This document shows, piece after piece, positions 2,170 to 50,870 of a DNA stretch of 64,000 nucleotides. The DNA is from Paenibacillus sp. HW567 (lineage in GTDB: Bacteria > Bacillota > Bacilli > Paenibacillales > Paenibacillaceae), in the NCBI RefSeq assembly GCF_000374185.1, contig NZ_KB910518.1, positions 129,951 to 193,950 of the forward strand, written 5' to 3'. The translations under genes and the position numbers were made by a program. The first letter of the stretch is position 1, and each line of letters opens with the position of its first letter. The notes below the pieces were generated by a model that saw only the letters and a program-made list of their open reading frames with translations, did not search any database and was not told the origin of the DNA.

Positions 2170-2464
2170 CGAAACGCGATGATGAGAAGAGTAGATATAT
2201 CCATTCTTTCACAGAGAGCCCCGGACGCTGAAAAGGGGCAAGAAACGGTATGTTGAACCAAGTCTCTGAGTGGCGTATCGGAACCGGCAGATTCCGGGGA
2301 TGGTGCGACAGGAGCTCCTGTTACAGAGCTAGAGTATAAGCCTTGCCTGCCCGGCAATGCCGTACTTGATGAGATTAATATGGCGACATATTAATAAACC
2401 TGGGGTGGTACCGCGAGAATCTCGTCCCCAAGACCATAAGTCTTGGAGGTGGGGTTCTTTTTTG
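2170..2464 (+). promoter_or_regulatory. T-box riboswitch, glutamine specifier (CAA), controlling glnS
   Basis: The conserved T-box core GGGTGGTACCGCG lies at 2403-2415 and is followed by a terminator helix (about 2421-2458) and a T-run. Upstream there is a stem I with AGAGAG (2214-2219), and a specifier region in which GAAC is followed by CAA (2259-2261) and then GTCTCTGAGTGG. The same spacing occurs in the second T-box of this window, which supports reading CAA (Gln) as the specifier codon. Uncharged tRNA-Gln would bind here and stabilise the antiterminator, so that the synthetase gene is read when glutaminyl-tRNA is scarce. Confidence 0.92.
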
Positions 2465-14547: not shown

Positions 14548-15549
14548 GTGATCAGACCGAAATTATTTATTGGCTCCTCCAGAGAATCCATCCGCTATGC
14601 ACGGGCGGTTCATGAGCAATTGAAGCGGGAAGCCCAGGTGAATCCGTGGTATGCGAGTGCGTTTCGGGCAAACGAATATACGATGGAGGCGCTGGAGAGG
14701 AACCTGGATGAGAGCGATTTTGCCGTATTCATCTTCTCGCCTGATGATGTAGCCAGAATCCGGGGTAAATATTATTATGTCACCCGTGATAACACTCAGT
14801 TTGAAATGGGGCTGTTCTGGTCCAGACTGCGGCGCAGCCGGGTCTTCTGCCTGCTGCCGGATCAGGTGCCGGCCCGCAGTGATCTTATTCCCGGTGAGAA
14901 CATTGAAGAATATCATCTGCTCTCCGATTTATCGGGCCTTACACCTTTGGAATACGAATGGCAGCATGACAATCCGGTGGCTGCCGTCGATGTCAGTTGC
15001 GGCAAGATTATCGACAGCATTCAGGAGCATGGAAGCTTCAGTGATCCACTGAAGGAGCTGGAGAAGCTGAAGCATGAGCTTAGGCGGAAAGAAAGTATCC
15101 TTCACTTCTTTTGGCAATATAATAGTAATGTGACCACTCCTGAACAGGGAGAGAAATATCAGGCGCTTAGCGAAGCGATTCGCAATTCCTTCATGCCTCC
15201 AAGACAATGCCGGGTAATCGGTGCTGCGATGTGGCAGGCCCGCGAGGCAGAAGGTCTGGTCCAGGTTGGCGGAAATGTGGGACGCGGGCATGTCTATCCT
15301 CTTTCATTGACTGAAGAGAGGAGGATGCGTCCGGGGGTGATGGAAGCTTTTTTGACCAAGGAATGGACCTTTTTTCAGCGTACGGAAGTTGCGGAGGTAT
15401 ATATCCTATGCTATCCTTTAGGTGAAAAGCATGTCCTTTCTGTACATTTTTCGGGGAGCGACGGATTGTCGGCGGATGATCTTACCGAGGTCGTATCGTA
15501 CAACCGGGATTTGTTCCGTACCGTCAATCATTTAGTGGGAGGGGACTAA
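14548..15549 (+). CDS. TIR-like (PF10137 type) protein with C-terminal GAF-like region
   Basis: The first 140 residues of this 333-residue protein match the TIR-like nucleotide-binding family also found as CBASS/Pycsar effectors: KLFIGSSRES at the N-terminus, DFAVFIFSPDD, then RDNTQFEMGLFWSRLRRSRVF. Glu86 in that last motif is in the place of the catalytic glutamate of TIR NAD-degrading enzymes, so the domain may be active. A charged helix (about 165-185) leads into a C-terminal segment (190-330) whose AAMWQ, VQVGGNVGRGHVYPL and YNRDLF pattern looks GAF-like to me; this is an inference. No cyclase, CD-NTase or other immunity gene is adjacent. A small basic gene follows after 4 bp. Confidence 0.75.
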   Translation: MIRPKLFIGSSRESIRYARAVHEQLKREAQVNPWYASAFRANEYTMEALERNLDESDFAVFIFSPDDVARIRGKYYYVTRDNTQFEMGLFWSRLRRSRVFCLLPDQVPARSDLIPGENIEEYHLLSDLSGLTPLEYEWQHDNPVAAVDVSCGKIIDSIQEHGSFSDPLKELEKLKHELRRKESILHFFWQYNSNVTTPEQGEKYQALSEAIRNSFMPPRQCRVIGAAMWQAREAEGLVQVGGNVGRGHVYPLSLTEERRMRPGVMEAFLTKEWTFFQRTEVAEVYILCYPLGEKHVLSVHFSGSDGLSADDLTEVVSYNRDLFRTVNHLVGGD

Positions 15550-15948: not shown

Positions 15949-15995
15949 AGTGCGGGGAAGTTTGGATACTTACGGAGCGGAAGCGACTGCCTCAT
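15949..15995 (+). repeat. Half copy of the 136-bp nested-hairpin element
   Basis: From GTGCGGGGAAGTTTGGA onward, about 45 bp follow the arm of the element at 35602 (GGGGAAGTTTGGA, then GGAGCGG, AGCG and GCCT in the same order and nearly the same spacing). The complementary arm is not recognisable downstream, so this looks like a truncated or decayed copy. Confidence 0.5.
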
Positions 15996-35535: not shown

Positions 35536-35601
35536 TTGAATTGAAGAGAATCTGCTTCATATTAAATAAGCCGATGCTTTTAAAATTAAATATGAGGATA
35601 A

Positions 35602-35737
35602 GTAGCGGAGGGGAAGTTTGGAACTGTAGGAGCGGTAGCGTCCGCCTTTATGATTGAATTTCTACCGCGATCAGCGGTTTAAATCAGGAAATTCAATCAT
35701 AACAGCGGCCGGAAGTCCAAACATTCCCCGCAGTTAC
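35602..35737. repeat. 136-bp nested-hairpin element, copy A
   Basis: The arms pair in tiers: GTAGC/GTTAC at the ends (one mismatch), GGGGAAGTTTGGA with TCCAAAC, a bulged base, then ATTCCCC, then CCGCC region with GGCCG, then a perfect 13-bp stem ATGATTGAATTTC-type arm (35650-35662 with 35688-35700), and an innermost ACCGC/GCGGT hairpin. It sits between the xylA terminator and xylB. The reverse complement matches copy B (47445-47580) over 41 identical bases in one flank, whereas the 13-bp stem differs. Confidence 0.85.
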
Positions 35738-35807
35738 GACCAGAATCCGAAATAGATCAATCACAAGTTTGGTTTATATACTAATTCCAACCTTTAGGAG
35801 GTTAACT

Positions 35808-37304
35808 ATGAAATATGTAATCGGTGTCGATCTTGGAACCAGTGCGGTCAAGACTGTATTGGTAGATCAGCAGGGAAAGGTGGCCTTTGAGCACTCGGAA
35901 GCCTATCCGCTCAGCAGACCGCAGCCGAACTGGAGTGAGCAGAATCCTGAGGACTGGGTGAAGGGGACGCTTGAGAGCCTTCGCCGCCTGATCGAGGTTT
36001 CAGGCGTGGACCCTTCGCAGGTAGATGGCATCAGCTTCTCCGGGCAGATGCACGGGCTGGTGCTAGTAGACAAGGATGGGAAGGCGCTGCGCCCGGCCAT
36101 TCTCTGGAATGACACCCGCACTACCGCTCAGTGCCGCAAGATTGAGCAGAAGCTGGGCAAGAGGCTGATCGAAATCGCCAGAAACCGTGCGCTGGAAGGC
36201 TTCACCCTGCCTAAGATTCTCTGGGTACAGGAGAATGAACCGGAGGTGCTGTCCCAGGCGGAGCTGTTCCTGCTGCCGAAGGATTATGTGCGTTACCGGC
36301 TGACCGGCGATTATGCTATGGATTATTCCGATGCCGCAGGCACGCTGCTGTTGGATGTAGGCTCCAAAACATGGAGTGCAGAAATCGCCGAAGCCTTCGG
36401 CCTGCCGGTCTCGCTCTGTCCGAAGCTCGTAGAGTCCTTTGATCTGACAGGCACGCTGCTGCCTGAGATTGCCAAAGCCTCCGGTCTGCTTCCTTCCACG
36501 AAGGTGTTTGCCGGTGGAGCGGACAATGCCTGCGGAGCGCTCGGCGCCGGTATTCTCGGCGAAGGCCGGACCATGTGCAGCATTGGCACCTCCGGTGTAG
36601 TGCTGTCTTATGAGAGCAACAAGGATCTTAATCTGGAAGGCAAAGTCCATTTCTTCAACCACGGGGAGAAGGATGCCTATTATATCATGGGGGTTACCCT
36701 GGCCGCAGGCTACAGCCTGACCTGGTTCAAGGAAACCTTTGCGGCGGATAAAAGCTTCGACGAGCTGCTGAAGGGTGTAGATTCCATCCCGGCAGGCAGC
36801 GGCGGTCTGCTGTTCACGCCGTACATTGTCGGAGAACGCACTCCGCACCCTGATGCCAATATCCGCGGCAGCTTTATCGGTATGGATTCCGGCCATAGCC
36901 TGTCGCACTTCACCCGTTCGGTGCTGGAAGGGATTACATTCTCGCTGCGTGAATCCATTGAGATCGTGCGCGAGTCCGGCAAGGATATAACCGAGATTGT
37001 AGCCATCGGCGGCGGAGCCAAGAATGAAGCGTGGCTGCAGATGCAGGCGGATATCTTCAATGCCTCGATCATCAAGCTGGAGAGTGAGCAAGGGCCGGCA
37101 ATGGGAGCGGCTATGCTGGCTGCTTACGGCAGCGGCTGGTTTACGTCGCTTGGCGAATGCGCGGATGCCTTCATCCGTTCTGCGGAGGTGTACACACCGA
37201 ATGCGCAGCAGGCAGCAGTGTATGATGGATTGTTTGGATTGTACCAGGAAGTCTATGGTCAAACACGGGCATTAAATGATAAACTGGCGGAATACCGTAA
37301 ATAG
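35808..37304 (+). CDS. xylB: Xylulokinase
   Basis: This 498-residue FGGY-family kinase phosphorylates xylulose with ATP, feeding the pentose phosphate pathway. It opens with VIGVDLGTSAVKTVLVD (phosphate 1 motif), has DGISFSGQMHGLVLVD and ILWNDTRTTAQCRKIE (sugar-binding region), FAGGADNACGALGAG (catalytic Asp in GADNACG) and VAIGGGAKNEAWLQMQADIF near the end. ATG 35808 follows AGGAGG; the upstream frame to 35769 is not used. An isolated promoter is not evident, so it is read either through the element upstream or from a weak local promoter. Confidence 0.96.
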   Translation: MKYVIGVDLGTSAVKTVLVDQQGKVAFEHSEAYPLSRPQPNWSEQNPEDWVKGTLESLRRLIEVSGVDPSQVDGISFSGQMHGLVLVDKDGKALRPAILWNDTRTTAQCRKIEQKLGKRLIEIARNRALEGFTLPKILWVQENEPEVLSQAELFLLPKDYVRYRLTGDYAMDYSDAAGTLLLDVGSKTWSAEIAEAFGLPVSLCPKLVESFDLTGTLLPEIAKASGLLPSTKVFAGGADNACGALGAGILGEGRTMCSIGTSGVVLSYESNKDLNLEGKVHFFNHGEKDAYYIMGVTLAAGYSLTWFKETFAADKSFDELLKGVDSIPAGSGGLLFTPYIVGERTPHPDANIRGSFIGMDSGHSLSHFTRSVLEGITFSLRESIEIVRESGKDITEIVAIGGGAKNEAWLQMQADIFNASIIKLESEQGPAMGAAMLAAYGSGWFTSLGECADAFIRSAEVYTPNAQQAAVYDGLFGLYQEVYGQTRALNDKLAEYRK

Positions 37305-37338
37305 CTGGAGCCTGGTTCGTCCATGCTCACATCTTGGA

Positions 37339-37372
37339 AATCCCGGAGAGGCGTTAGCGCCTCTCCGGGATT
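37339..37372. terminator. Hairpin after xylB
   Basis: A perfect 15-bp stem AATCCCGGAGAGGCG with its complement around TTAG. It has no T-run, and the next gene starts 23 bp later, so it may act as a weak terminator or an mRNA end-protecting stem. Confidence 0.6.
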
Positions 37373-37394
37373 ACGCCTTAGGGGTTGACCAAAA

Positions 37395-38936
37395 TTGATA
37401 AAAGTGCTGATTGTAGATGACGAGCCCAAGCTAAGGGAAGGGATGCGAACGCTGATTCCCTGGGAGGAGCAGGGCTACACCGTAGTGGCGACAGCAGCGA
37501 ACGGCTTTGAAGCGCTTGAAAAATTCCATACGTTTAAGCCCAAGCTGATTGTCGCGGATATCCGGATGCCGGGAATGGACGGCCTGGAGCTGATCAACGA
37601 GCTGCGTAAAGAAAACGCCGACTGCCATGTGCTGATCCTAAGCGGCCATGCCGACTTCGAATATGCCAAACGGGCGATTTCCTATCATATCGACGGATAT
37701 TTGCTCAAGCCGGTGGATGAGGATGAACTGGTCTCTTATTTGCAGAATCTGCGCGAGACGATAAGCCGTGAGGAGCTTTTGAACCAGTTCCAGGCGGATG
37801 GCGCTGCACGCAGCAGCGATAATCTGCTGCGCCAGTTGCTGCAGCCGCAGGATGACAGTGCCGACACGGCGGAAGCTACTGCGGAGCTTGGTCTGGAAGG
37901 GCATAGCTGCGAGGTTGTGCTTCTGGAGCTGAAGCACCTCCAGAAGGGTGAAGATGCCCGTGAAGAGCAGGTAAGGAAACAGCTTGAGCAGTATTGGCAG
38001 CAGGAGGACGTGCTGTTCTTCAGCCTGCCGCCATACATGGGACTGCTTCTAAAGGCGCCGCTGCGGGATGAAGCTGACCGGACAGCCTTATGGGGGAAGC
38101 TGAATGAGGTGATCGCTGGGCAGGGTATGGATTTTTATTCCGCTGCCGGCGGTGCCGCCGCCGGACCCGAGGAGGCGTCCAGGTCGTTCACGGCTGCAAG
38201 CCATTTGCTCGACGGAGCCTTTTTGGGCAGAAAGGGCACGATTCTTAGCGGAACTGCGGATGATTGGGCAGAGCCGCAGATAGAGCCTGAAGAGGAGCTT
38301 GATCCCGAACGTGATGTTGAAGTGCAACTGCTGCTGGCGATCGAGACGGGGAACAATGAGGCAATTGCCCCGCTCGTGGGACAAATTATCCGTAAGCTGG
38401 TTGCTGTGAAACGGGAAGAAACCTACATCAAGGATAATCTGATACGGATTGTAAGCAGCACCATCGCCCGTCTGGAGGCGGTGAACTCGGATATCCGTCC
38501 CTTTATAGCGGCGCATGCCTCACCCGTGAGCGAGGTCTACAGCAGCGATTATCTCAGCGATGTCGAGACGGTGGTATCGGATTATATGGAGCAAATAGCG
38601 AAGCAGATGCACAGCGGGGGACGGGGCAATGAGATCAAGCGGATCACCGATCTGATCCAGCGCCGTTACAATGAGAACCTGAAGCTCGGGTCGCTTGCGG
38701 AAGTATTCAATTACAACAGCGCCTATTTGGGCAAAATGTTCAAGAATCAGGTGGGCGAGCATTTTAACACCTATCTGGATAAGGTAAGGATAGAGAAGGC
38801 GAAGCAGTTTTTGAATCAGGGCATGAAGGTGTATGAAGTGGCCGAAAAGGTCGGCTATATGAATTCGGATTATTTTAATGCCAAATTCCGCAAATACGTC
38901 GGTGTATCTCCAACCGCTTTCCGCAAGGAGCAATAA
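37395..38936 (+). CDS. YesN-type response regulator with AraC DNA-binding domain
   Basis: The protein has 513 residues. It starts at TTG 37395, ten bases after AGGGG. The receiver domain opens MIKVLIVDDEPK with phospho-acceptor Asp55 (VADIRMPGMDG) and YLLKPVDEDEL. A long middle region is followed by two helix-turn-helix units (KLGSLAEVFNYNSAYLGKMF and KVYEVAEKVGYMNSDYFNAKF), ending SPTAFRKEQ. Here the regulator precedes its kinase, opposite to the locus at 9.7-13.2 kb. It should activate the lpl-type transporter and GH95 genes downstream. Confidence 0.93.
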   Translation: MIKVLIVDDEPKLREGMRTLIPWEEQGYTVVATAANGFEALEKFHTFKPKLIVADIRMPGMDGLELINELRKENADCHVLILSGHADFEYAKRAISYHIDGYLLKPVDEDELVSYLQNLRETISREELLNQFQADGAARSSDNLLRQLLQPQDDSADTAEATAELGLEGHSCEVVLLELKHLQKGEDAREEQVRKQLEQYWQQEDVLFFSLPPYMGLLLKAPLRDEADRTALWGKLNEVIAGQGMDFYSAAGGAAAGPEEASRSFTAASHLLDGAFLGRKGTILSGTADDWAEPQIEPEEELDPERDVEVQLLLAIETGNNEAIAPLVGQIIRKLVAVKREETYIKDNLIRIVSSTIARLEAVNSDIRPFIAAHASPVSEVYSSDYLSDVETVVSDYMEQIAKQMHSGGRGNEIKRITDLIQRRYNENLKLGSLAEVFNYNSAYLGKMFKNQVGEHFNTYLDKVRIEKAKQFLNQGMKVYEVAEKVGYMNSDYFNAKFRKYVGVSPTAFRKEQ

Positions 38937-38965
38937 AAAGACCTACTGAAATCCGGTATATATCT

Positions 38966-39025
38966 GTATAATAACAATCAGTACAGGCTGTTCCCCATGC
39001 TGCAGCAGATGCGGGGAACGGCCTG
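38966..39025 (+). promoter_or_regulatory. Possible promoter and leader hairpin before the sensor kinase
   Basis: TATAAT at 38966-38971 may be a -10 box, but no clear -35 is seen. Directly after it ACAGGC and GTTCCCC pair with GGGGAAC and GCCTGT (38983-39025, one mismatch) followed by TTGTCC. The stem could end the regulator mRNA or attenuate kinase expression. Confidence 0.4.
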
Positions 39026-39080
39026 TTTGTCCATGATTTGGCTCGAAATACAGAGAGGAGGAGCAGGGATTACAACACTG

Positions 39081-40874
39081 GTGCGTTTGATCAACAATAT
39101 GAAGATGAAGTATAAGCTGATCTTTTTCTACATTATTATAGTAATGATTCCGGTGCTGATCCTGGGAATTACCTTAATCAGCTATTTTCGCGGAGAGGCC
39201 TTAACCAGAGCGATTGAACAGGCAAGCAATAATGTGGCGAAAATTAAGATTCAAATGACGACAAAGCTTCGCGTTCCCACAGACATTTCGAATCTGCTTT
39301 ATTTTGACAAGGATCTTGAGAAGCTGGTGAATACGTATTATCCCAATACCCTGGAGCTGACGAAGGCTTATTTGAATTACACGGATTTCCAGGATTACAT
39401 TCTCCAGTACCGTGAGATTTCGAATATCCGCTTATTTATCGACAACCCTACCCTGGTGGATAACATGTCCGTTGCCCCGCTGACCCCGGAACTGAAGACC
39501 AGAATCTGGTATAAAAAGATTATGCAGAGCCCGGGACTCAACTGGATGTATATCCCTGATAAAGAGGCGTACAATAACAGTCCCAAAGCTACGATCAATA
39601 AGCTCAGTCTGGTCCGGCGGGTGGTGTACCCCGAGTATCAAAGAACGGGAGTGCTGATGGTGCAGGTTGTGCAGGATGAGCTGAACCAGATGCTGTACCA
39701 GGAGCCGTTTGAGACGATTATTACGGACGAGCAAGGGTACATTGTCGCTGCCAAGGACCCGAAGCTTGTAGGGAGTACCCTGAATTCTTTTGATATTGGA
39801 AAAGATCTAACGGATACCGCCCAAAATGTAATCCGGACAACGGTCAAGGGTAAGGATTCCTATGTGATTGTCGATGAAATCAGACCGGCGCTTAGTGTGA
39901 GCCGGCTGAAAGTCATATCCGTCTTCGAGACGAAAAGCATCCTGAGCGGGGCATCCAAGGTAAGTCTCCTGGGGCTGATGATTATCATCGGCGTTCTGCT
40001 GATCGCTCTCGTGATGGTCTATGTCATTTCTTTTCTTATGACGAACCGTCTGCTCCGTTTGAGCCGCCAATTAAATCAGGTGGCGCTCGGTAATCTGAAT
40101 GTAGTCTCGCAGATTGACGGTAAGGATGAAATCGGCCAGTTGTCGCGCCAATTCAATTATATGGTGGCGAGCATTAACCGCCTGCTGTCACAGGTCGTGG
40201 AGAGCAACGAGAAGAACAACAAGCTGGAGATTGCGCAAAGAGAGATCAAATTGAAAATGATGGCCAGCCAGATTCATCCTCATTTTCTGTTCAATGCGCT
40301 GGAGTCCATCCGTATGAATGCCCACTTAAAGGGAGACAAGGAAATCGCCAATATTGTCCGGCTGCTGGGCAAGCTGATGCGCAAAAATCTGGAGGTAGGC
40401 AGAGAGCGTGCACCGATCAAGGAAGAGGTTGAAATGATGCGCTCCTACCTGGAAATTCAGAAGTTCCGCTATGAGGACAGGCTGGAGTATGACATTGTTT
40501 TTGATGCGAAGGCCGCGGATATTTTGATTCCGCCACTGATCATCCAGCCGATGGTCGAGAATTCGGTGGTTCACGGACTGGAGAATAAAGAAGGAACGGT
40601 TCATGTCCATGTCAGCATAACGCTTCATGAGGATGAAGTGCAGGTATGTGTCACGGACGACGGCATCGGCATGACAGAGGAGCGGCTGGCGGAGATTATG
40701 TCTGTGATTACCCGGGCGGAGGAGGAGCCGCAGGGCCGCATTGGGCTGCGCAACGTTCACCAGCGTCTGGTGATGTATTACGGGGAGGCGCACGGGCTGA
40801 ACATATCGAGTGAACAAGGGACGGGAACACGGATTTTCTTCTCCATTCCGAGTGAGCGTGAGCCTAAAGCATAG
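39081..40874 (+). CDS. YesM-type sensor histidine kinase
   Basis: This kinase has about 597 residues from GTG 39081; the frame is open back to 38997, and the best Shine-Dalgarno tract (AGAGGAGGAGCAGGG, ending 39068) would actually fit an ATT codon at 39069, so the start is uncertain. It has a first membrane helix (LIFFYIIIVMIPVLILGITLI), an extracellular sensor of about 260 residues, a second helix (LGLMIIIGVLLIALVMVYVI), HAMP, a HisK_5 domain with His401 (IHPHFLFNALESI) and an ATPase domain (IIQPMVENSVVHGL, DDGIGM). It is paired with the regulator upstream and the transporter downstream. Confidence 0.9.
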   Translation: MRLINNMKMKYKLIFFYIIIVMIPVLILGITLISYFRGEALTRAIEQASNNVAKIKIQMTTKLRVPTDISNLLYFDKDLEKLVNTYYPNTLELTKAYLNYTDFQDYILQYREISNIRLFIDNPTLVDNMSVAPLTPELKTRIWYKKIMQSPGLNWMYIPDKEAYNNSPKATINKLSLVRRVVYPEYQRTGVLMVQVVQDELNQMLYQEPFETIITDEQGYIVAAKDPKLVGSTLNSFDIGKDLTDTAQNVIRTTVKGKDSYVIVDEIRPALSVSRLKVISVFETKSILSGASKVSLLGLMIIIGVLLIALVMVYVISFLMTNRLLRLSRQLNQVALGNLNVVSQIDGKDEIGQLSRQFNYMVASINRLLSQVVESNEKNNKLEIAQREIKLKMMASQIHPHFLFNALESIRMNAHLKGDKEIANIVRLLGKLMRKNLEVGRERAPIKEEVEMMRSYLEIQKFRYEDRLEYDIVFDAKAADILIPPLIIQPMVENSVVHGLENKEGTVHVHVSITLHEDEVQVCVTDDGIGMTEERLAEIMSVITRAEEEPQGRIGLRNVHQRLVMYYGEAHGLNISSEQGTGTRIFFSIPSEREPKA

Positions 40875-40981
40875 CAAATGTAAGCGATGTCTAATTTCCA
40901 CTGATTTTACGTGAAATCTGTCGGGTATTCTCTCTAAGTGGTGTACGGTATGATATGTGTATACAAAACGAAGGGGGAATA

Positions 40982-41968
40982 ATGAACGTGAAAGCGCTCA
41001 CGGAAAATGGTGTTATAGCTAATGAAAGCGTAACCCCCGTCCCACCTGCGAAACGGAATAGTGGATTTTGGAAAAGCGTACTGCAGCAAAAGTACTTGTA
41101 TCTGATGTCACTTCCGTTCGTGATCTGGGTCTTTATTTTCAGTTACGTGCCCTTGTGGGGATGGTTGATGGCATTTCAGAATTATAAACCGGCCAAGTCC
41201 TTTGGAGATCAGAAATGGGTAGGGCTTAAAAATTTCAAAGAGCTTTTCCAGGATGAACGTTTCTATCTGGTACTGAGAAATACGCTGGCTATGAGCGGGC
41301 TCGGACTCGTGTTCGGCTTCGTCGTTCCGATATTGTTCGCGGTTATGCTCAACGAGCTGCGGGGAAATGTCTTCAAAAGAACGGTCCAGACCGTATCCTA
41401 TCTGCCTCACTTTGTATCCTGGGTCGTTGTAGGCGGGATTGTCTATAAGACACTCGCGATCGACGGAGGGGTTGTCAACGACATGCTGATGGGGCTGCAT
41501 ATTATTGACGAGCCGATTCAGTTCATGGCGAAGGCTAAAATGTTCTGGGGTGTTGTAACGGTAGCGGATCTTTGGAAAGAAACCGGTTGGAATGCGATTA
41601 TCTATTTGGCAGCCATTACAGGTATTGATAAAGAGCTTTACGAAGCTGCAAAAGTAGACGGAGCCGGAAGAATCAAGCAAATGTTCAATATTACTCTGCC
41701 GGGTATCCGCACCACTATTATGGTATTGCTGATTATGTCCATTGGCCATCTGGTCGGAATCGGCTTCGAAAAGCAGTTCCAGCTTGGCAATAACCTGGTT
41801 ACCGATTATTCGGAAGTACTGGATTTGTATGCGCTTAAGTACGGGATTCAAATCTCGCGATTCTCCTATGGTACAGCCATTAGTATGTTCACCTCGGTAG
41901 TCAGTGTATTCTTGCTGCTTACAGCCAACGGTCTGATGAAGAAATTCACTAAAGAAAGCATCATGTAA
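40982..41968 (+). CDS. lplB: LplB-type ABC transporter permease
   Basis: This 328-residue membrane subunit starts at ATG 40982 behind AAGGGGGAATA. Opening helix LYLMSLPFVIWVFIFSYVPLWGW and GWLMAFQNYKPAKSF are typical of the LplB/YtcP-type permeases for complex saccharides. The EAA loop is LYEAAKVDGAGRIKQMFNITLPG. It is followed after 13 bp by its partner permease. It needs an external ATPase such as MsmX, which is not in this cluster. Confidence 0.92.
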   Translation: MNVKALTENGVIANESVTPVPPAKRNSGFWKSVLQQKYLYLMSLPFVIWVFIFSYVPLWGWLMAFQNYKPAKSFGDQKWVGLKNFKELFQDERFYLVLRNTLAMSGLGLVFGFVVPILFAVMLNELRGNVFKRTVQTVSYLPHFVSWVVVGGIVYKTLAIDGGVVNDMLMGLHIIDEPIQFMAKAKMFWGVVTVADLWKETGWNAIIYLAAITGIDKELYEAAKVDGAGRIKQMFNITLPGIRTTIMVLLIMSIGHLVGIGFEKQFQLGNNLVTDYSEVLDLYALKYGIQISRFSYGTAISMFTSVVSVFLLLTANGLMKKFTKESIM

Positions 41969-41981
41969 GGAGGGGATAAGC

Positions 41982-42881
41982 GTGGGAAGCAAAGCTTTTC
42001 AAATGTCAAAGTCTGAACGTGCGTTCGACATCTTTCTATACATTTTTCTTGCAATCATAATGATCGTGACTTTATATCCCTTCCTGAACGTATTAGCGAT
42101 TTCTTTTAATGAATCCACAGATACCGTTCGGGGCGGCATATATATCCTTCCGAGAGTCTGGACCCTTGAAAACTATCAGAAAATCTTCAGCTATACAGGG
42201 CTGGTTCAAGGCTTCAAAATTTCCATTCTCCGGACTGTAGCCGGTACAGTTCTAGGGCTTATAAGCTCTTCGATGCTGGCCTTTACACTAAGCCGTCCAG
42301 AGTTCAGAGCCAGAAAATTTGTATCGTATTTCCTGGCAATGACGATGTATTTCTCCGGCGGTATGGTGCCTATGTACATCCTGATGAGAGATCTCAATTT
42401 GATCGGAACGTTCTGGATTTACATTTTGCCGGGTGCAGTTTCTGCCTTTAACGTATTCGTCATCCGCTCCTTTATGGACGGGCTGCCTTTCGCCCTGCAG
42501 GAATCAGCGAAGCTGGACGGTGCCAATGACTTCGTAATTTATTACAAGATCATCATGCCGCTCTGTATGCCTGTGCTGGCAACAATCACGTTGTTCCTGG
42601 CGGTTGGTCAGTGGAATGAATGGTTCACCACTTACCTGTATAACGGCAATAAGCCGAATCTGACTACGCTCCAGTATGAGCTGATGAAGGTGCTGGCAAC
42701 GACGAACCAAGGCAGTGGCATGGTCAATGCCAATGATATGGCGAAGCAAATGGCGCAAATTTCGCCGGAATCTATCAAGATGGCGATTACTATCGTAGTA
42801 ACCGTACCGATTCTTGTGGTATATCCATTCCTGCAAAAGTATTTTGTGAATGGTATGACCCTGGGAGCTGTTAAGGCTTAA
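41982..42881 (+). CDS. lplC: LplC-type ABC transporter permease
   Basis: The subunit has 299 residues. The start is GTG 41982 behind GGAGGGG. Six helices; the EAA loop is LQESAKLDGANDFVIYYKIIMPL, and the end reads KYFVNGMTLGAVKA as in the LplC/YtcP group. It pairs with the preceding permease. After it, a stem-loop (about 42897-42949) without T-run separates it from the binding-protein gene, which has its own promoter region and cre box. Confidence 0.92.
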   Translation: MGSKAFQMSKSERAFDIFLYIFLAIIMIVTLYPFLNVLAISFNESTDTVRGGIYILPRVWTLENYQKIFSYTGLVQGFKISILRTVAGTVLGLISSSMLAFTLSRPEFRARKFVSYFLAMTMYFSGGMVPMYILMRDLNLIGTFWIYILPGAVSAFNVFVIRSFMDGLPFALQESAKLDGANDFVIYYKIIMPLCMPVLATITLFLAVGQWNEWFTTYLYNGNKPNLTTLQYELMKVLATTNQGSGMVNANDMAKQMAQISPESIKMAITIVVTVPILVVYPFLQKYFVNGMTLGAVKA

Positions 42882-42995
42882 GATGTGAGGCAGACGGGAA
42901 GGGAGTACTGTTCTGGTTCAGCCCTGGCTGGATCAGAGGTATTCCCGCCCAATTTCTTCCGGAGCATTGAGTTGAATTTATTTTTATAATGGTTT

Positions 42996-43009
42996 TGCAA
43001 GCGTTGTCA
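42996..43009 (+). promoter_or_regulatory. cre site before lplA
   Basis: TGCAAGCGTTGTCA fits the CcpA consensus TGNAANCGNWNNCW at every defined position. A TATAAT box (42985-42990) lies directly upstream, so CcpA binding here would block initiation in the presence of preferred sugars. Confidence 0.7.
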
Positions 43010-43075
43010 ATGGTATATTCAGGACTATCCTGATATGCATAGATGAATTACACAATTTTACAAGGGGGATACACA

Positions 43076-44815
43076 ATGAAACGCAAGAGTATTAAGACAG
43101 TCTTTACGCTCATGCTAATGAGTTCCATGCTGATCGCCGGCTGTGGAGGCGGAAACAACAATGCTGCTACTAACAACGGTAATAAATCAGAAGGCACAAC
43201 CAATAATGCAGCTACAGCAACAAACGCAGCTAATGATACCAGTCCGGTTACCTTCTCGTTCTTTGGTGCCGATGCCAGTCCTAACTGGAACAAAATGCAG
43301 GATGATGTAGGTAAGGTTATTACCGAAAAAACTGGTGTAACCCTGAATGCTGAATATGATGTGGGCAGCGGCGGCGGCGAACAAAAGATTTCTTTGATGG
43401 CAGCCAGCGGCGAAGTGCCTGATTTGATCTTTGCTAAGAGTTATATTGCAAAATTGGTTGATGCAGGCCTGATTATAGATATGACAGATCTGATCGACAA
43501 GTACGCGCCAAACTTGAAAAAGATCTACGGCGACAATATGAACCGATTGAAATATAGCAAAGACGATCAAAAAATCTATTCCATTCCTACAAATACCGGG
43601 GTTAACCAACAATCCTTTGACGCTACAGGCGGCTTTGAAATTCAGCACAGAGTGTTGAAGGAGCTTGGATATCCTCAAGTAAAAACGTTGGCGGATTATG
43701 AGAAAGTGCTGAAGGAATATGTAGCCAAACATCCTGAAACGGATGGACAGCCAACTATTCCTCTCTCCTTGAATGCAGACGACTGGAAAATCATGATTAC
43801 CGTTACCAACCCGGCGTTCATTACGACCGGTGCACCGGATGACGGTGAATATTACGTAGATCCAAAAACCTATGAAGCGAAGCTTCACTACAAACGTCCG
43901 GAAGAAAAAGAATACTTCCGTTGGTTGAACAATATGTATGCTCAAGGACTGCTGGATAAAGATACCTTTGTCCAAAAGGATGACCAATACAAGGCTAAAG
44001 TAGCCAGTGGACGCGTGCTCGGTCTCATCTCCCAAGAATGGGAGTATCAAGACGGCGAGAATGCCCTGAAATCAGCAGGCAAGGACGATTACACCTATGC
44101 TCACTTCCCTGTAACCATGTCCGATCAATATAAGGATCATTCCTTCCAGTCTTCAGGCGTTGATGCTGCCGGAATCAGTATCACTACCGCTTGTAAAGAT
44201 CCGGTTCGCGCAATTAAGTTCCTGGATTGGCTTGCTTCCGATGAAGGTCAAGTGCTGATGAACTGGGGTATTGAAGGTAAACAATATACCGTAAACGCAG
44301 AAGGCAAACGTGAAATTCCTGCGGATGTTCAAAAGAAGAAAACAGATGATGCTGCCAATTTTGCCAAGGAAACAGGTATTGGCCTGTACACAGCTTTGAC
44401 TGGTCACTACGGCGATGGTGTGAAGGATTCCACAGGCAACTATTACACTACTAACTTCCCGGATCAAATCGTTGCTGCATATTCTCAGGCAGAGAAGGAT
44501 TCTCTGAAAGCATACGGAGCAACAACCTGGAAGGATCTGTTCCCTAAAGAATCCGACTTCCCGGTTAAGGAATGGGGCGCGCTGTACAACATGCCTACTC
44601 CAACAGATGGCGATTATCAGGTTACCTACAAGAAAACTCAGGATATTATCCGTAAACGTATCCCTGAAGCCATCCTGTCCAAACCTGCTGACTTCGACAA
44701 GGTATATGATGCATTTATCGCTGAGCTGAACAAAGCCGGCGCTGAAAAAATGGAAGCAGAATATACTGATCTCGTTAAAGCGAGAGTATCCCTGTGGACT
44801 GGCAAGGATCTGTAA
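43076..44815 (+). CDS. lplA: LplA-type large substrate-binding lipoprotein
   Basis: This 579-residue extracellular binding protein for an oligosaccharide belongs to the large 55-60 kDa group that pairs with LplB/LplC. The signal peptide ends at MLIAGC (Cys23), followed by a Gly/Asn/Thr/Ala linker. The mature part begins TFSFFGADASPNWNKM and contains the typical VGSGGGEQKISLMAASGEVPDLIF stretch (key PDLIF). ATG 43076 follows AAGGGGGATACACA. It has a separate promoter region with a perfect cre site and a terminator after it, consistent with much higher expression than the permeases. Confidence 0.93.
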   Translation: MKRKSIKTVFTLMLMSSMLIAGCGGGNNNAATNNGNKSEGTTNNAATATNAANDTSPVTFSFFGADASPNWNKMQDDVGKVITEKTGVTLNAEYDVGSGGGEQKISLMAASGEVPDLIFAKSYIAKLVDAGLIIDMTDLIDKYAPNLKKIYGDNMNRLKYSKDDQKIYSIPTNTGVNQQSFDATGGFEIQHRVLKELGYPQVKTLADYEKVLKEYVAKHPETDGQPTIPLSLNADDWKIMITVTNPAFITTGAPDDGEYYVDPKTYEAKLHYKRPEEKEYFRWLNNMYAQGLLDKDTFVQKDDQYKAKVASGRVLGLISQEWEYQDGENALKSAGKDDYTYAHFPVTMSDQYKDHSFQSSGVDAAGISITTACKDPVRAIKFLDWLASDEGQVLMNWGIEGKQYTVNAEGKREIPADVQKKKTDDAANFAKETGIGLYTALTGHYGDGVKDSTGNYYTTNFPDQIVAAYSQAEKDSLKAYGATTWKDLFPKESDFPVKEWGALYNMPTPTDGDYQVTYKKTQDIIRKRIPEAILSKPADFDKVYDAFIAELNKAGAEKMEAEYTDLVKARVSLWTGKDL

Positions 44816-44861
44816 GCACTATTATGACAGCGGAGCATTGATCCGCTAACCACAAGGATCA

Positions 44862-44895
44862 AGCAAAGGCCCGACTTTGGTCAGGGCCTTTTGCT
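44862..44895 (+). terminator. Terminator after lplA
   Basis: AGCAAAGGCCC pairs with GGGCCTTTTGCT around an 11-base loop, and the T-run is part of the descending arm. The GH95 gene starts 26 bp later, so its level depends on read-through. Confidence 0.65.
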
Positions 44896-44921
44896 GTACA
44901 TTCATATCGGAGGGCGAGAAG

Positions 44922-47303
44922 ATGACGAACCATAACCCGGAGCGTGCCTGGACCTTGAAGTACGGCCGGCCCGCAGAAATTTGGGAAGAAGCGCTGCCGC
45001 TCGGCAACGGGCACATGGGGGCGATGGTATTCGGCGGTACGTCCAAGGAGCGAATTCAGCTCAATGAGGATACTTTATGGGCGGGATTTCCCCGGGATGA
45101 CAATAACTATGAAGCGCAGCGTTATTTGAAGCAGGTGCGTGAACTGGTCTTCGCGGGAAGCTACGGAGAGGCTGAGGATATCATTAATGGGCATATGCTT
45201 GGCGTGAATACGCAGCCGTATTTGCCGCTGGGAGATTTGTACCTGGAGCAGGCGGGAGCCGGGAACCCTGAAGGGTATCGCCGGGAGCTGGATCTGGACA
45301 GCGGCATTGCCAGTGTGTCCTACCAGACGGGGAATGGAGCATTTACCCGCGAGGCGTTCATCAGTGCTCCTGACGGAGTATGTGCCGTATATACAGCCAG
45401 TGAGGCCCAAGGTCAGCTTCATCTGACGATTTCCTTGCACAGCCCCTTGAAGCATACAACGGGAGCGTACGGAGAGCGGCAGCTTGTGCTGCGCGGCCAG
45501 TGTCCTACCCATATCGCAGACAACTATCATGGCGATCATCCCTATCCCATTCAATATGAGGAAGGGCTTGGCATCAGCTTTGAGCTGCAACTGCAAGCTG
45601 TGGTTACCGGCGGCAGCGTCCAGGCTGAGGATGGGAAGCTTGTAATCTCCGGTGCAGACAGTGTACTGCTGCTGCTTGCCGCCGGCACCACTTATGAAGA
45701 GCTTAAGAACAAGGCGGCGCATATCCGGGGAGACATTGCTGAAGATTCTGTGGCGGCAGTGAGTCCTGCGGAGGACTGTGCCCGGAGATTGCAAGCGGCA
45801 GCGTCCAGGTCCTATGCGGAGCTGCGGCAGCGGCATGTGGATGAACACCGGAGAATCTTCCGCCGGGTGGATCTGGATCTTGGCGGCTGGGAAGCGAGTG
45901 AGCAGCCGACAGACCAGCGGCTGGCTGCATACAAAGAAGGCCAGGAAGATCCCGCACTTGAGGCGCTGCTATTTCAATATGGCCGCTATCTGCTGATGGG
46001 CAGCTCCCGTCCGGGGACACAGGCCGCGAATCTGCAAGGGATTTGGAACCAACATGTAACACCGCCCTGGAACAGCAACTACACCACCAATATCAATACC
46101 CAGATGAATTATTGGCTGGCTGAGGTAGGCAACCTGAGTGAATGCCATGAGCCTCTAATTGATATGGTCCGCGAGGTCAGCGTCACCGGAGCCAGAACCG
46201 CCGCTATTCATTACGGGGCGCGGGGCTGGGTAGCCCATCACAATGTGGACCTCTGGCGCAGTTCTTCACCGTCGGGCGGGGATGCCAGTTGGGCTTTCTG
46301 GCCGATGGGCGGCGTCTGGCTGAGCAGCCACCTGTGGGAGCATTATGCCTTTAACCCGGACCCGGCATATCTTGCGCAAACGGCATACCCGCTTATGAAG
46401 GGTGCAGCATTGTTCTGTATAGACTGGCTGGTTGAAGGACCGGATGGCCTGCTGCTGACAAATCCGTCCACTTCACCGGAGAACCGTTTTGTGACGGAAG
46501 CCGGCAGACCCTGCAGTGTCTCTATGGGCTCGGCTATGGATATGAGCCTGATCCGCGAGCTATTCGGACATTGCCTGCAGGCAGCGCGGCTTCTGGGCAT
46601 GGACGAGGCATTCCAGCATCAATTGGAGGAGACGCTGGCCCGCCTGTCTCCACTGAAGATCAGCGGGGACGGACGTCTGCAGGAGTGGTCTCTGGATTTC
46701 ACGGAATCCGAGCCGGGGCATCGCCATGTCTCGCATCTGTATGGACTGTATCCCGGCAATCTGATCAACGGAAAGGAGACACCGGACCTGCTGGAAGCGG
46801 CCCGCCTGTCTCTGGAGAAGCGAATTGCTTCCGGCGGCGGACACACCGGCTGGAGCTGTGCCTGGCTGATCAATTTGTACGCCCGGCTTAAGGATGGTGC
46901 CGCCGCTTACGGGTTCGTCCGTACACTGCTGACCCGGTCGGTGTACCCGAACCTGTTCGATGCGCATCCGCCATTTCAGATTGACGGTAATTTTGGGGCT
47001 GCTGCCGGGATCGCAGAAATGCTGCTGCAGAGTCATCTGGGCGAAATCAGCCTCCTTCCGGCACTGCCGCAGCATTGGAAGAATGGCCGGGTCCAGGGAC
47101 TCAAGGCCCGTGGCGGCTATGAGGTGGATCTGGAGTGGAAGGAACATGTACTTGTCTCCGCCAGGATTACTGCATCGTGTGACGGACTATGCCAGCTAAG
47201 CTATTCACGTGCGCTGAAGCTTCAGCTTCCTGACGGCACAGTAGTGGAAACCAGCGGCCCGCTGGCAGTCAAAGCGGGAGTAAGCTATCTCATCACGCTG
47301 TAA
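44922..47303 (+). CDS. GH95-family glycoside hydrolase (probable alpha-L-fucosidase)
   Basis: The enzyme has 793 residues without a signal peptide, so it is probably cytosolic. Start ATG 44922 behind GGAGGGCGAGAAG. It has the N-terminal beta domain ([27 protein letters not shown]) and an (alpha/alpha)6 barrel. All four catalytic-site positions known from GH95 alpha-1,2-fucosidase are recognisable: Asn390 and Asn392 in [13 protein letters not shown], Glu520 in [10 protein letters not shown] and Asp688 in PFQIDGNFG. Members cleave alpha-1,2-linked L-fucose or related L-galactose. Last gene of the sensor-transporter cluster, so the imported saccharide probably carries such a cap. Confidence 0.9.
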
Positions 47304-47311
47304 GCTGAAAT

Positions 47312-47349
47312 TGCTCTCCTGCAGAATTTATGCGGAGAGCAGTTTTTTT
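47312..47349 (+). terminator. Terminator after the GH95 gene
   Basis: TGCTCTCC pairs with GGAGAGCA, followed by seven T residues after one G. Confidence 0.85.
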
Positions 47350-47444
47350 GCCGCGGTATTTACTTGGCTGCAGTATTGAACCGATAATAGATTAAAGTGT
47401 ATTCTATATAGGTTGAACAATAGATTTTCATATTGGGTCTGGTC

Positions 47445-47580
47445 GTAACTGCGGGGAATGTTTGGACTTCCGGCCGCTGTTGTCTGCAGATTTCTTGATT
47501 TGTACCGCTCTTCGCGGTTGAAATCCGCAGACAAAGGCGGACGCGTTCGCTCCTCCAGTTCCAAACTTCCCCTCCGTTAC
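47445..47580. repeat. 136-bp nested-hairpin element, copy B (inverted relative to copy A)
   Basis: It is the same length and tiered structure as copy A but in opposite orientation. Ends GTAAC/GTTAC pair perfectly, GGGGAA(T)GTTTGGA pairs with TCCAAACTTCCCC, the central 13-bp arm GTCTGCAGATTTC pairs with GAAATCCGCAGAC with one mismatch, and ACCGC/GCGGT closes the tip. The 41 bases from 47441 are identical to copy A's complement. It lies in the 450-bp gap between the GH95 and transglutaminase-like genes; the rest of that gap shows no gene. Confidence 0.85.
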
Positions 47581-47755
47581 TTCGGCCCTTTTTATGTTTT
47601 TTTTAGTTCAACTGATATAGGCAGTGAGGCCGTTGCAGGAATAAACTAACCCTATTAAGGAAGTTACGGTTGTGGAAACTGGAATTTCGGCATCTACTAT
47701 AAAGTACATACAACCGGGTGAGCCATAGTACGGCTTGTAGGAGGATACGCGATCT

Positions 47756-50589: not shown

Positions 50590-50870
50590 GCGCACAAAAA
50601 CCGCAGACGAATTCTGCGGTTTCCTGTATTTACAGCTCCGCACCATACTCCCTGTTAGATAGCGCAACACAGTCAGCGCTCCAGTAACCTGGCGGCCTGT
50701 ACCGTGACAGTTCCGTGCCTTTCGGCGACGGCCCCAGCCTGCACTGCAAATAAGAGCAGCAGTACGGACTTCGGCGGATATACCTTTTCGCGGCGCTTCA
50801 CAGACGGCTCTTAGGCGTCTCGGCGCGCGTACTCTTTATATCCGCGACCTCTACCTCATCTTAGGTATGA
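50590..50870 (-). promoter_or_regulatory. Lysine riboswitch (L box) with terminator, controlling lysP
   Basis: On the minus strand the leader carries the conserved pieces in order: GAGGTAGAGGTCGCGG, AAGAGTACGCG, CTGTGAAGC, ATCCGCCGAAG, GGCTGGGGCC and AACTGTCA, matching the lysine aptamer core. It ends in an intrinsic terminator AACCGCAGA/TCTGCGGTT plus TTTT (50622-50595). Lysine binding favours the terminator. I see no other gene in the 50.52-50.96 kb gap. Confidence 0.92.

What the first reader, a model, noticed from the sequence alone, without database searches (positions are those of the whole stretch)
35602..47580. 136-bp nested-hairpin element with compensatory changes in its central stem
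Two copies of equal length (35602-35737 and 47445-47580) lie in opposite orientation. One flank of 41 bases is identical between them and the other nearly so. The central 13-bp stem differs at seven positions of the 5' arm, and six of these are matched by changes in the 3' arm that restore pairing. The innermost ACCGC/GCGGT tip is kept while its loop changes. Nearly unchanged arms with a swapped but still paired stem mean that pairing of the centre, not its sequence, is conserved. This fits a structured RNA, a cruciform-forming mobile repeat (MITE/REP-like) or a cassette whose stem is exchanged. I know of no named family with this pattern. A half copy is at 15949.
Basis: seen in the sequence. 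Interest (0 to 1): 0.85.

Follow-up and report, generated by a model that had tools for sequence, protein, structure and literature searches.

The report
Mobile folded-RNA repeat of Paenibacillus
A repeated DNA element found in more than a hundred places of this bacterium's genome, and in most of the related genomes searched, keeps a long hairpin by matched changes on both sides of its stems, so it likely works as a folded RNA inside neighbouring genes' transcripts and probably spreads like a small transposon.

Summary
The two 136-bp copies are the core (35601-35740 +, 47442-47581 -) of a dispersed element of about 217 bp (copy 2: 47404-47620, with terminal inverted repeats). A covariance model finds at least 124 places in this genome, 120 of 148 genomes of its family, 147 of 198 of its order, and one genome outside the family among 299 of its class. 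Rfam has no match. In 47 distinct copies from 15 other genera, 95.5% of 1,764 pair cells are standard pairs and 33 of 38 pairs change on both sides. On pairs shared by both strands' folds, G-U exceeds A-C 44:7 across genera but only 15:8 within this genome, so the strand of selection rests mainly on the wider set. Of 96 classifiable copies here, 63 run with both neighbouring genes, 10 against. Copy 1 sits between xylA and xylB, where 29 of 29 fetched relatives lack it. At one orthologous site the central stem differs as a block but stays paired. Best reading: a non-autonomous mobile element carrying a selected structured RNA. Mover, transcription and RNA function were not shown. A new variant of MITE-like repeats (nearest: bcr elements).

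The parts
35601..35740 (+). copy 1, conserved core (model positions 1-140), between xylA and xylB in their direction
   Evidence: cmsearch 165.6 bits on + versus 21.9 on -; neighbours match TIGR02630 and TIGR01312
35648..35662 (+). 5' arm of the central stem of copy 1 (TTATGATTGAATTTC)
   Evidence: sequence; alignment
35688..35702 (+). 3' arm of the central stem of copy 1 (GAAATTCAATCATAA)
   Evidence: sequence
47404..47620 (-). copy 2, whole element of 217 bp with terminal inverted repeats CTATATAGGTTGAAC / GTTCAACTGATATAG
   Evidence: TIR-bounded copies of the short class in this genome are 215-220 bp
47442..47581 (-). copy 2, conserved core
   Evidence: cmsearch 170 bits on -, 26.5 on +
15951..15993 (+). 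truncated copy: left end of the core only, preceded by an outer arm TATATAACTTGAACTTAAAAAATCATAAAAAGG
   Evidence: nhmmer 24.7 bits; sequence; the covariance model does not report it

Best explanation
The 136-bp repeat is the core of a dispersed element of about 217 bp that keeps a long, interrupted hairpin through pair-preserving changes in its many copies and across the window's bacterial order; it likely spreads as a non-autonomous transposable element and is predicted to act as a folded RNA inside the untranslated parts of neighbouring genes' transcripts. Shown here: the repeat family and its distribution; covarying helices (outer arms, the GGGGAAG-TTTGGA helix, central stem); a bias toward the direction of neighbouring genes; presence and absence at orthologous sites; mixing of modules between copies. 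Inferred: that a trans-acting transposase recognising the terminal inverted repeats moved it; that copies swap central stems by recombination or gene conversion; that the strand given here is the one selected; that it is co-transcribed. Least certain: what the folded RNA does. I think the likeliest role is at the mRNA level, as a rod-like RNA that shields or marks the transcript for processing, tolerated mainly in the sense direction because the antisense reading, a hairpin followed by T-runs, would look like a terminator in this genome.
For: Copies: at least 124 at E<=0.01, 150 of 2775 candidates scored. Distribution: family 120/148, order 147/198. Covariation: A2, 47 distinct rows from 15 genera, 95.5% of 1764 cells paired, score 0.616 vs 0.181 shuffled and at most 0.124 slid; A3, a plain MAFFT alignment not fitted to a structure, 96.6% of 1503 cells, 0.523 vs 0.179 shuffled and at most 0.130 slid. 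Strand: model 166-170 bits vs 22-27 on the other strand for the window copies; RNAfold energy lower on this strand in 72 of 98 copies, higher in 25; on A3, pairs shared by both strands' folds have G-U 44, A-C 7. Outer arms match their own partner better than other copies' in 74 of 90, and in 42 of 49 lacking TTGAAC. Direction: with both neighbours 63, against both 10, of 96 (control 898 and 919 of 3000). Mobility: 0 of 29 fetched relatives have it between xylA and xylB; copy 2 site lacks it in 3 of 3; the same exact ends in another genus (L159) and in P. baekrokdamisoli (L272). Maintenance: at six orthologous sites substitutions are 4.7% at paired and 9.5% at unpaired positions.
Against: No mover found: the IS630-like elements end in TAGTACCTTGACCG, and the list shows no end-motif pair at transposon distance. 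No target-site duplication recognised. In most copies the outer ends are the least conserved part, unlike a typical transposon terminus. The within-genome G-U excess of 98:10 is largely from nine pairs that only this strand's fold contains (83:2); on the 29 pairs shared by both folds it is 15:8, and counted by pair it is 16 of 22 (p 0.05). The antisense fold of A1, with some other pairs, has its own G-U 74 vs A-C 15, 63 of them from one nearly invariant column. Folding one orthologue alone left 27 of 403 pairs broken. No consistent position: divergent 11 vs convergent 12 here, convergent enriched in other genera. No RNA-seq.
Confidence: 0.58

Rival explanations
1. DNA-level palindrome: stems stay paired because hairpin-templated repair (template switching between arms), together with gene conversion between copies, rewrites one arm to match the other; no RNA is selected.
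For: Central stem different as a block at an orthologous site; modules mix between copies; orientation also follows the leading strand, 93 of 118 after six tandem copies were dropped, as a single-strand hairpin process could give; within this genome the G-U excess on pairs shared by both folds is only 15:8.
Against: Across genera G-U exceeds A-C 44:7 on shared pairs; conserved unpaired stretches such as CTGGAGAAGCG and AACAGCG are not explained by arm correction; in lagging-strand gene pairs 4 of 6 copies follow the genes, not replication (small numbers).
Confidence: 0.22
2. Cis-regulatory RNA (riboswitch or attenuator class) that controls the downstream gene.
For: Structured RNA with conserved loops; in many copies the right end lies shortly before a ribosome-binding site and start codon (seen by eye); copy 1 precedes xylB.
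Against: Divergent regions are not preferred over convergent ones (11 vs 12; 6 vs 33 in other genera); more than 100 copies per genome; no Rfam match; absent from the xylA-xylB gap in 29 of 29 fetched relatives. The functions of neighbours other than those of the window copies were not surveyed.
Confidence: 0.08
3. Bidirectional transcription terminator that spread as a repeat.
For: In 74 distant copies examined, 16 have TTTT in the 16 nt at the 3' end, 29 have AAAA at the 5' end and 13 have both (6% of random 16-mers drawn from whole loci, not only intergenic DNA); convergent regions enriched there.
Against: In this genome only 4 of 96 have TTTT at the 3' end, against 53 with AAAA at the 5' end; copies here lie mostly between co-directional genes, one between xylA and xylB; conserved internal loops are not needed for termination.
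Confidence: 0.1

Closest known systems
bcr1-bcr18 intergenic repeats of the Bacillus cereus group
   Same: Intergenic repeats of a Gram-positive group; bcr1-3 described as MITE-like, bcr10 and bcr18 as having conserved secondary structure and lying in 5' UTRs; 40-51% of copies found in transcripts (passages of PMC3446304).
   Different: Other hosts; this family spans an order and reaches over 100 copies per genome, and one element shows both mobility signs and strong covariation. Sequence similarity to bcr elements was not tested.
MITEs of prokaryotes
   Same: Short, terminal inverted repeats, intergenic, transcripts that form stable stem-loops (passages of PMC10969869).
   Different: Core more conserved than the ends; no partner transposase or target duplication found; helices covary across genera.
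REP / RAYT elements
   Same: Dispersed intergenic palindromes.
   Different: REPs are 20-40 bp (start of the abstract of PMC3733652); this core is about 140 nt, and the one Y1_Tnp gene found has no copy in its locus.
BOX elements of pneumococcus
   Same: Modular repeat with an optional internal module (recalled; from no call).
   Different: Here an optional hairpin module of about 36 nt and variable central stems; no sequence comparison made.

Membership tests
MITE (non-autonomous DNA transposon) | terminal inverted repeats | tested here: met
   33 pairs of CTATATAAGTTGAAC-type ends (<=2 mismatches each) 118-259 bp long in the 92 sequences scanned (window, 80 own-genome loci, 11 chosen others); many other copies have different, still paired arms
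MITE (non-autonomous DNA transposon) | short, high copy number, no transposase gene inside | tested here: met
   215-259 bp for full TIR-bounded copies in this genome, >=124 places; too short for a transposase
MITE (non-autonomous DNA transposon) | target-site duplication | tested here: inconclusive
   no direct repeat evident at the flanks; no empty site aligned to the base
MITE (non-autonomous DNA transposon) | autonomous partner with the same ends | tested here: not met
   searched in this genome only: no end-motif pair at transposon distance (<=1 mismatch); IS630-like ends differ
MITE (non-autonomous DNA transposon) | presence/absence between relatives | tested here: met
   absent between xylA and xylB in 29 of 29 fetched relatives; copy 2 site without it in 3 of 3
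Structured RNA family | covarying helices across divergent sequences | tested here: met
Structured RNA family | transcribed | not testable with these tools
   no RNA-seq
Rfam families (4227, release 15) | match at gathering score | tested here: not met
   only T-box and lysine riboswitch elsewhere in the window; around copy 1 two matches at E 4.9, far under gathering
REP/RAYT | RAYT-type Y1 transposase flanked by the repeat | tested here: not met
   one PF01797 match in the genome, no copy in its 3.3-kb locus
Riboswitch / 5' leader regulator | consistent position upstream of genes | tested here: not met
bcr elements | sequence or fold similarity | not tested
   no bcr sequence was compared

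The most novel reading that the evidence does not exclude
An order-wide transposable RNA: a mobile element whose selected product is a folded RNA rather than its DNA ends, so that each of its more than 100 copies per genome keeps its own stems by compensatory change or by swapping whole stems with other copies. It would be one of the most numerous structured RNA classes in these bacteria and would imply an unknown protein or RNA machine that recognises it.
Probability: 0.33. Interest if true: 0.88.

Novelty: new variant of a known kind. Interest (0 to 1): 0.71.

Why it matters
Bacterial MITE-like repeats are usually taken as DNA hitch-hikers whose hairpins follow from their inverted ends. Here a fold is kept over an order while its sequence changes, in a family that also shows gain and loss of sites. 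If true, it gives hundreds of natural variants for asking what a folded RNA does in bacterial UTRs and how structured RNAs spread, and adds a large RNA class that Rfam 15 does not match. It also warns that covariation alone does not prove a host regulatory RNA when copies exchange stems.

Tried and rejected
REP/RAYT: not supported. IS630 as mover: ends differ. Phage-borne: no match in the phage records; one IMG/VR contig has one copy. Plasmid-borne: one record matched, a Paenibacillus guangzhouensis plasmid, 74.8% identity over 73% of the query. Known RNA family: none. 5'-leader regulator: not supported. Replication alone as cause of orientation: 93 of 118 copies lead, but gene direction adds to it (54 of 62 vs 2 of 6, Fisher p 0.007; only six lagging gene pairs). 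Target-site duplication: looked for, not found. Terminator: fits a subset only. In print: nine searches of open-licence PMC papers; no title or abstract start listed describes this repeat. I saw listings, and passages only of PMC3733652, PMC10969869, PMC3446304 and PMC2267715. Subscription papers are not held, so this is weak evidence.

Rows dropped before counts: 16 of 112 copies (14 overlap an ORF call, two of these also lacking a neighbour; two more lack a neighbour); six tandem-array copies (arm and module tests); six tandem and two internally deleted copies from A1 (64 of 72); the 222-nt hit from A3 (46 of 47 distant copies, plus copy 1). One search was given 46 of the 47 hits and 80 of the 91 (edge and partial hits left out), and then set aside 34 copies overlapping an ORF call and one at an edge. 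ORFs were called by a simple length rule, so neighbour classes are approximate. In one search one of eight orthologous pairs gave no full alignment.

Full report
CHECK. Both copies are present as described. All seven changed positions of the central stem keep a pair in the orientation copy 1 + / copy 2 -, six by double change and one as G-U. A model of the family scores that strand at 165.6 and 170 bits and the opposite strand at 21.9 and 26.5.

FAMILY. blastn of copy 1 gave 48 matches in the own genome with 40 of 144 candidates scored; GGGGAAGTTTGGA with up to one mismatch gave 121 hits against 8 for the reversed control. In 80 fetched stretches plus the window, nhmmer gave 112 copies after overlaps were merged; 98 cover nearly the whole core, 72 of them short (about 140 nt) and 26 longer. 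An extra hairpin module is recognised by pattern in 19 of 90 copies. A covariance model from 64 short copies finds 124 places, a lower bound. blastn over 60 genomes, own included, matched 31, all of the same genus; the model matched 120 of 148 family genomes in 13 of 19 genera and 147 of 198 order genomes in four families. A second model, from A3, matched 28 of 299 genomes of the class: 27 in the window's family and one outside, G515, with two weak hits. The order name Paenibacillales is recalled, not from a call.

ELEMENT. Conservation runs past the core into paired outer arms. In this lineage they end in CTATATAAGTTGAAC and its inverse; 60 places match with up to one mismatch, control 1. End-bounded copies in this genome are 215-220 bp (short), 252-259 (long), one of 233, and shortened forms of 118-163. 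Exact ends on both sides also occur in L159 (another genus by handle) and L272 (P. baekrokdamisoli), at 195 and 197 bp. Other lineages have different but paired arms.

FOLD. On A1, 25 of 38 pairs show changes on both sides. On A2 (47 distinct copies, 15 other genera; loci) 33 of 38 do, 95.5% of cells pair, and the score is 0.616 against 0.181 in shuffles; none of 500 shuffles reaches any measure. A2 was fitted to the model; the unfitted A3 gives 96.6% and 0.523 against 0.179, though its structure was predicted from it. Shuffles keep no relatedness, so these are not probabilities.

STRAND. Counted on the fold of this strand, G-U exceeds A-C 98 to 10 on A1 and 58 to 8 on A3. That count favours the folded strand. 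On pairs present in both strands' folds it is 15 to 8 on A1 (29 pairs) and 44 to 7 on A3 (27 pairs). The antisense fold has G-U 30, A-C 44 on A3 but 74 and 15 on A1, where one nearly invariant column supplies 63. Minimum energies favour this strand in 72 of 98 copies, and alignment folding energies are -48.4 vs -29.8 (A1) and -34.9 vs -27.4 (A3). I read this as support for this strand, stronger across genera than within the genome.

STEM EXCHANGE. Among 64 copies there are 33 distinct central-arm pairs. At an orthologous site G000 258673 has TTGTCTCCAGATGTT where G031 has TTATGTTTGGATTTC, each with its own matching 3' arm, while flanks agree. Left module, optional module and central stem occur in mixed combinations. 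So block replacement as well as single compensatory change likely contributes.

SITES. Copy 1 lies between xylose isomerase and xylulokinase genes in their direction. None of the 29 fetched relatives (of 99 other genomes matched) has the element in that gap; three have one beyond xylB. In four of them another hairpin repeat sits in the gap. Copy 2's gap is shorter and lacks the element in three relatives, but that DNA is too diverged to read a target. Other sites are kept between species: six with local identity 90-96%. Folding one sequence only, paired positions changed at 4.7% and unpaired at 9.5%; of 403 pairs 2 changed on both sides, 6 on one side and 27 were broken. A joint fold over seven sites, one of them 71% identical, gave 7 both-sided, 8 one-sided and 0 broken of 411, but is biased toward pairs.

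DIRECTION. Of 96 classifiable copies 63 run with both neighbours, 10 against both, 12 lie between convergent and 11 between divergent genes; random intergenic places give 898, 919, 493 and 690 of 3000. By replication 93 of 118 are leading; where both genes lead, 54 of 62 copies lead, where both lag, 2 of 6. In other genera and named genomes the 91 classified copies were 34 with both, 18 against both, 33 convergent and 6 divergent; control 770, 826, 715, 689.

MECHANISM. I take it as a non-autonomous mobile element whose transcript is folded and selected. Mobility is inferred from ends and site differences; the mover is unknown. The RNA role is inferred from covariation and strand evidence; its action is the least certain part.

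Noticed in passing
L082-L085 (xylA-xylB gap of G028, G031, G015, G034): A different hairpin repeat occupies the gap where the window has copy 1, twice in L085; a similar sequence lies between two copies of the element in L198.
   Followed up: partly
G000:C1:4164484-4165421 and 4012131-4012708: Tandem arrays of the element: five copies at about 199 bp and three at about 219 bp.
   Followed up: partly
window 2170-2432 (+) and 50652-50861 (-): T-box leader and lysine riboswitch, just over and well over their Rfam gathering scores.
   Followed up: no
L111-L114: Four IS630-like elements, 96-98% identical, inserted at CTAG with ends TAGTACCTTGACCG.
   Followed up: partly
window 14548-15549: ORF weakly similar to CBASS Cap12 NAD hydrolase models, far below their cut-offs.
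   Followed up: no
G515: Two weak model hits in a genome of another family of the class; contamination or transfer not examined.
   Followed up: no
L143, L148, L172, L173, L174, L196, L198, L232, L236: In these nine loci (L196 and L232 are orthologous) two copies lie head to head (- then +), about 117-530 bp apart; same-direction close pairs also occur (L179, L188, L220). No close tail-to-tail pair was noticed; cause unknown.
   Followed up: partly
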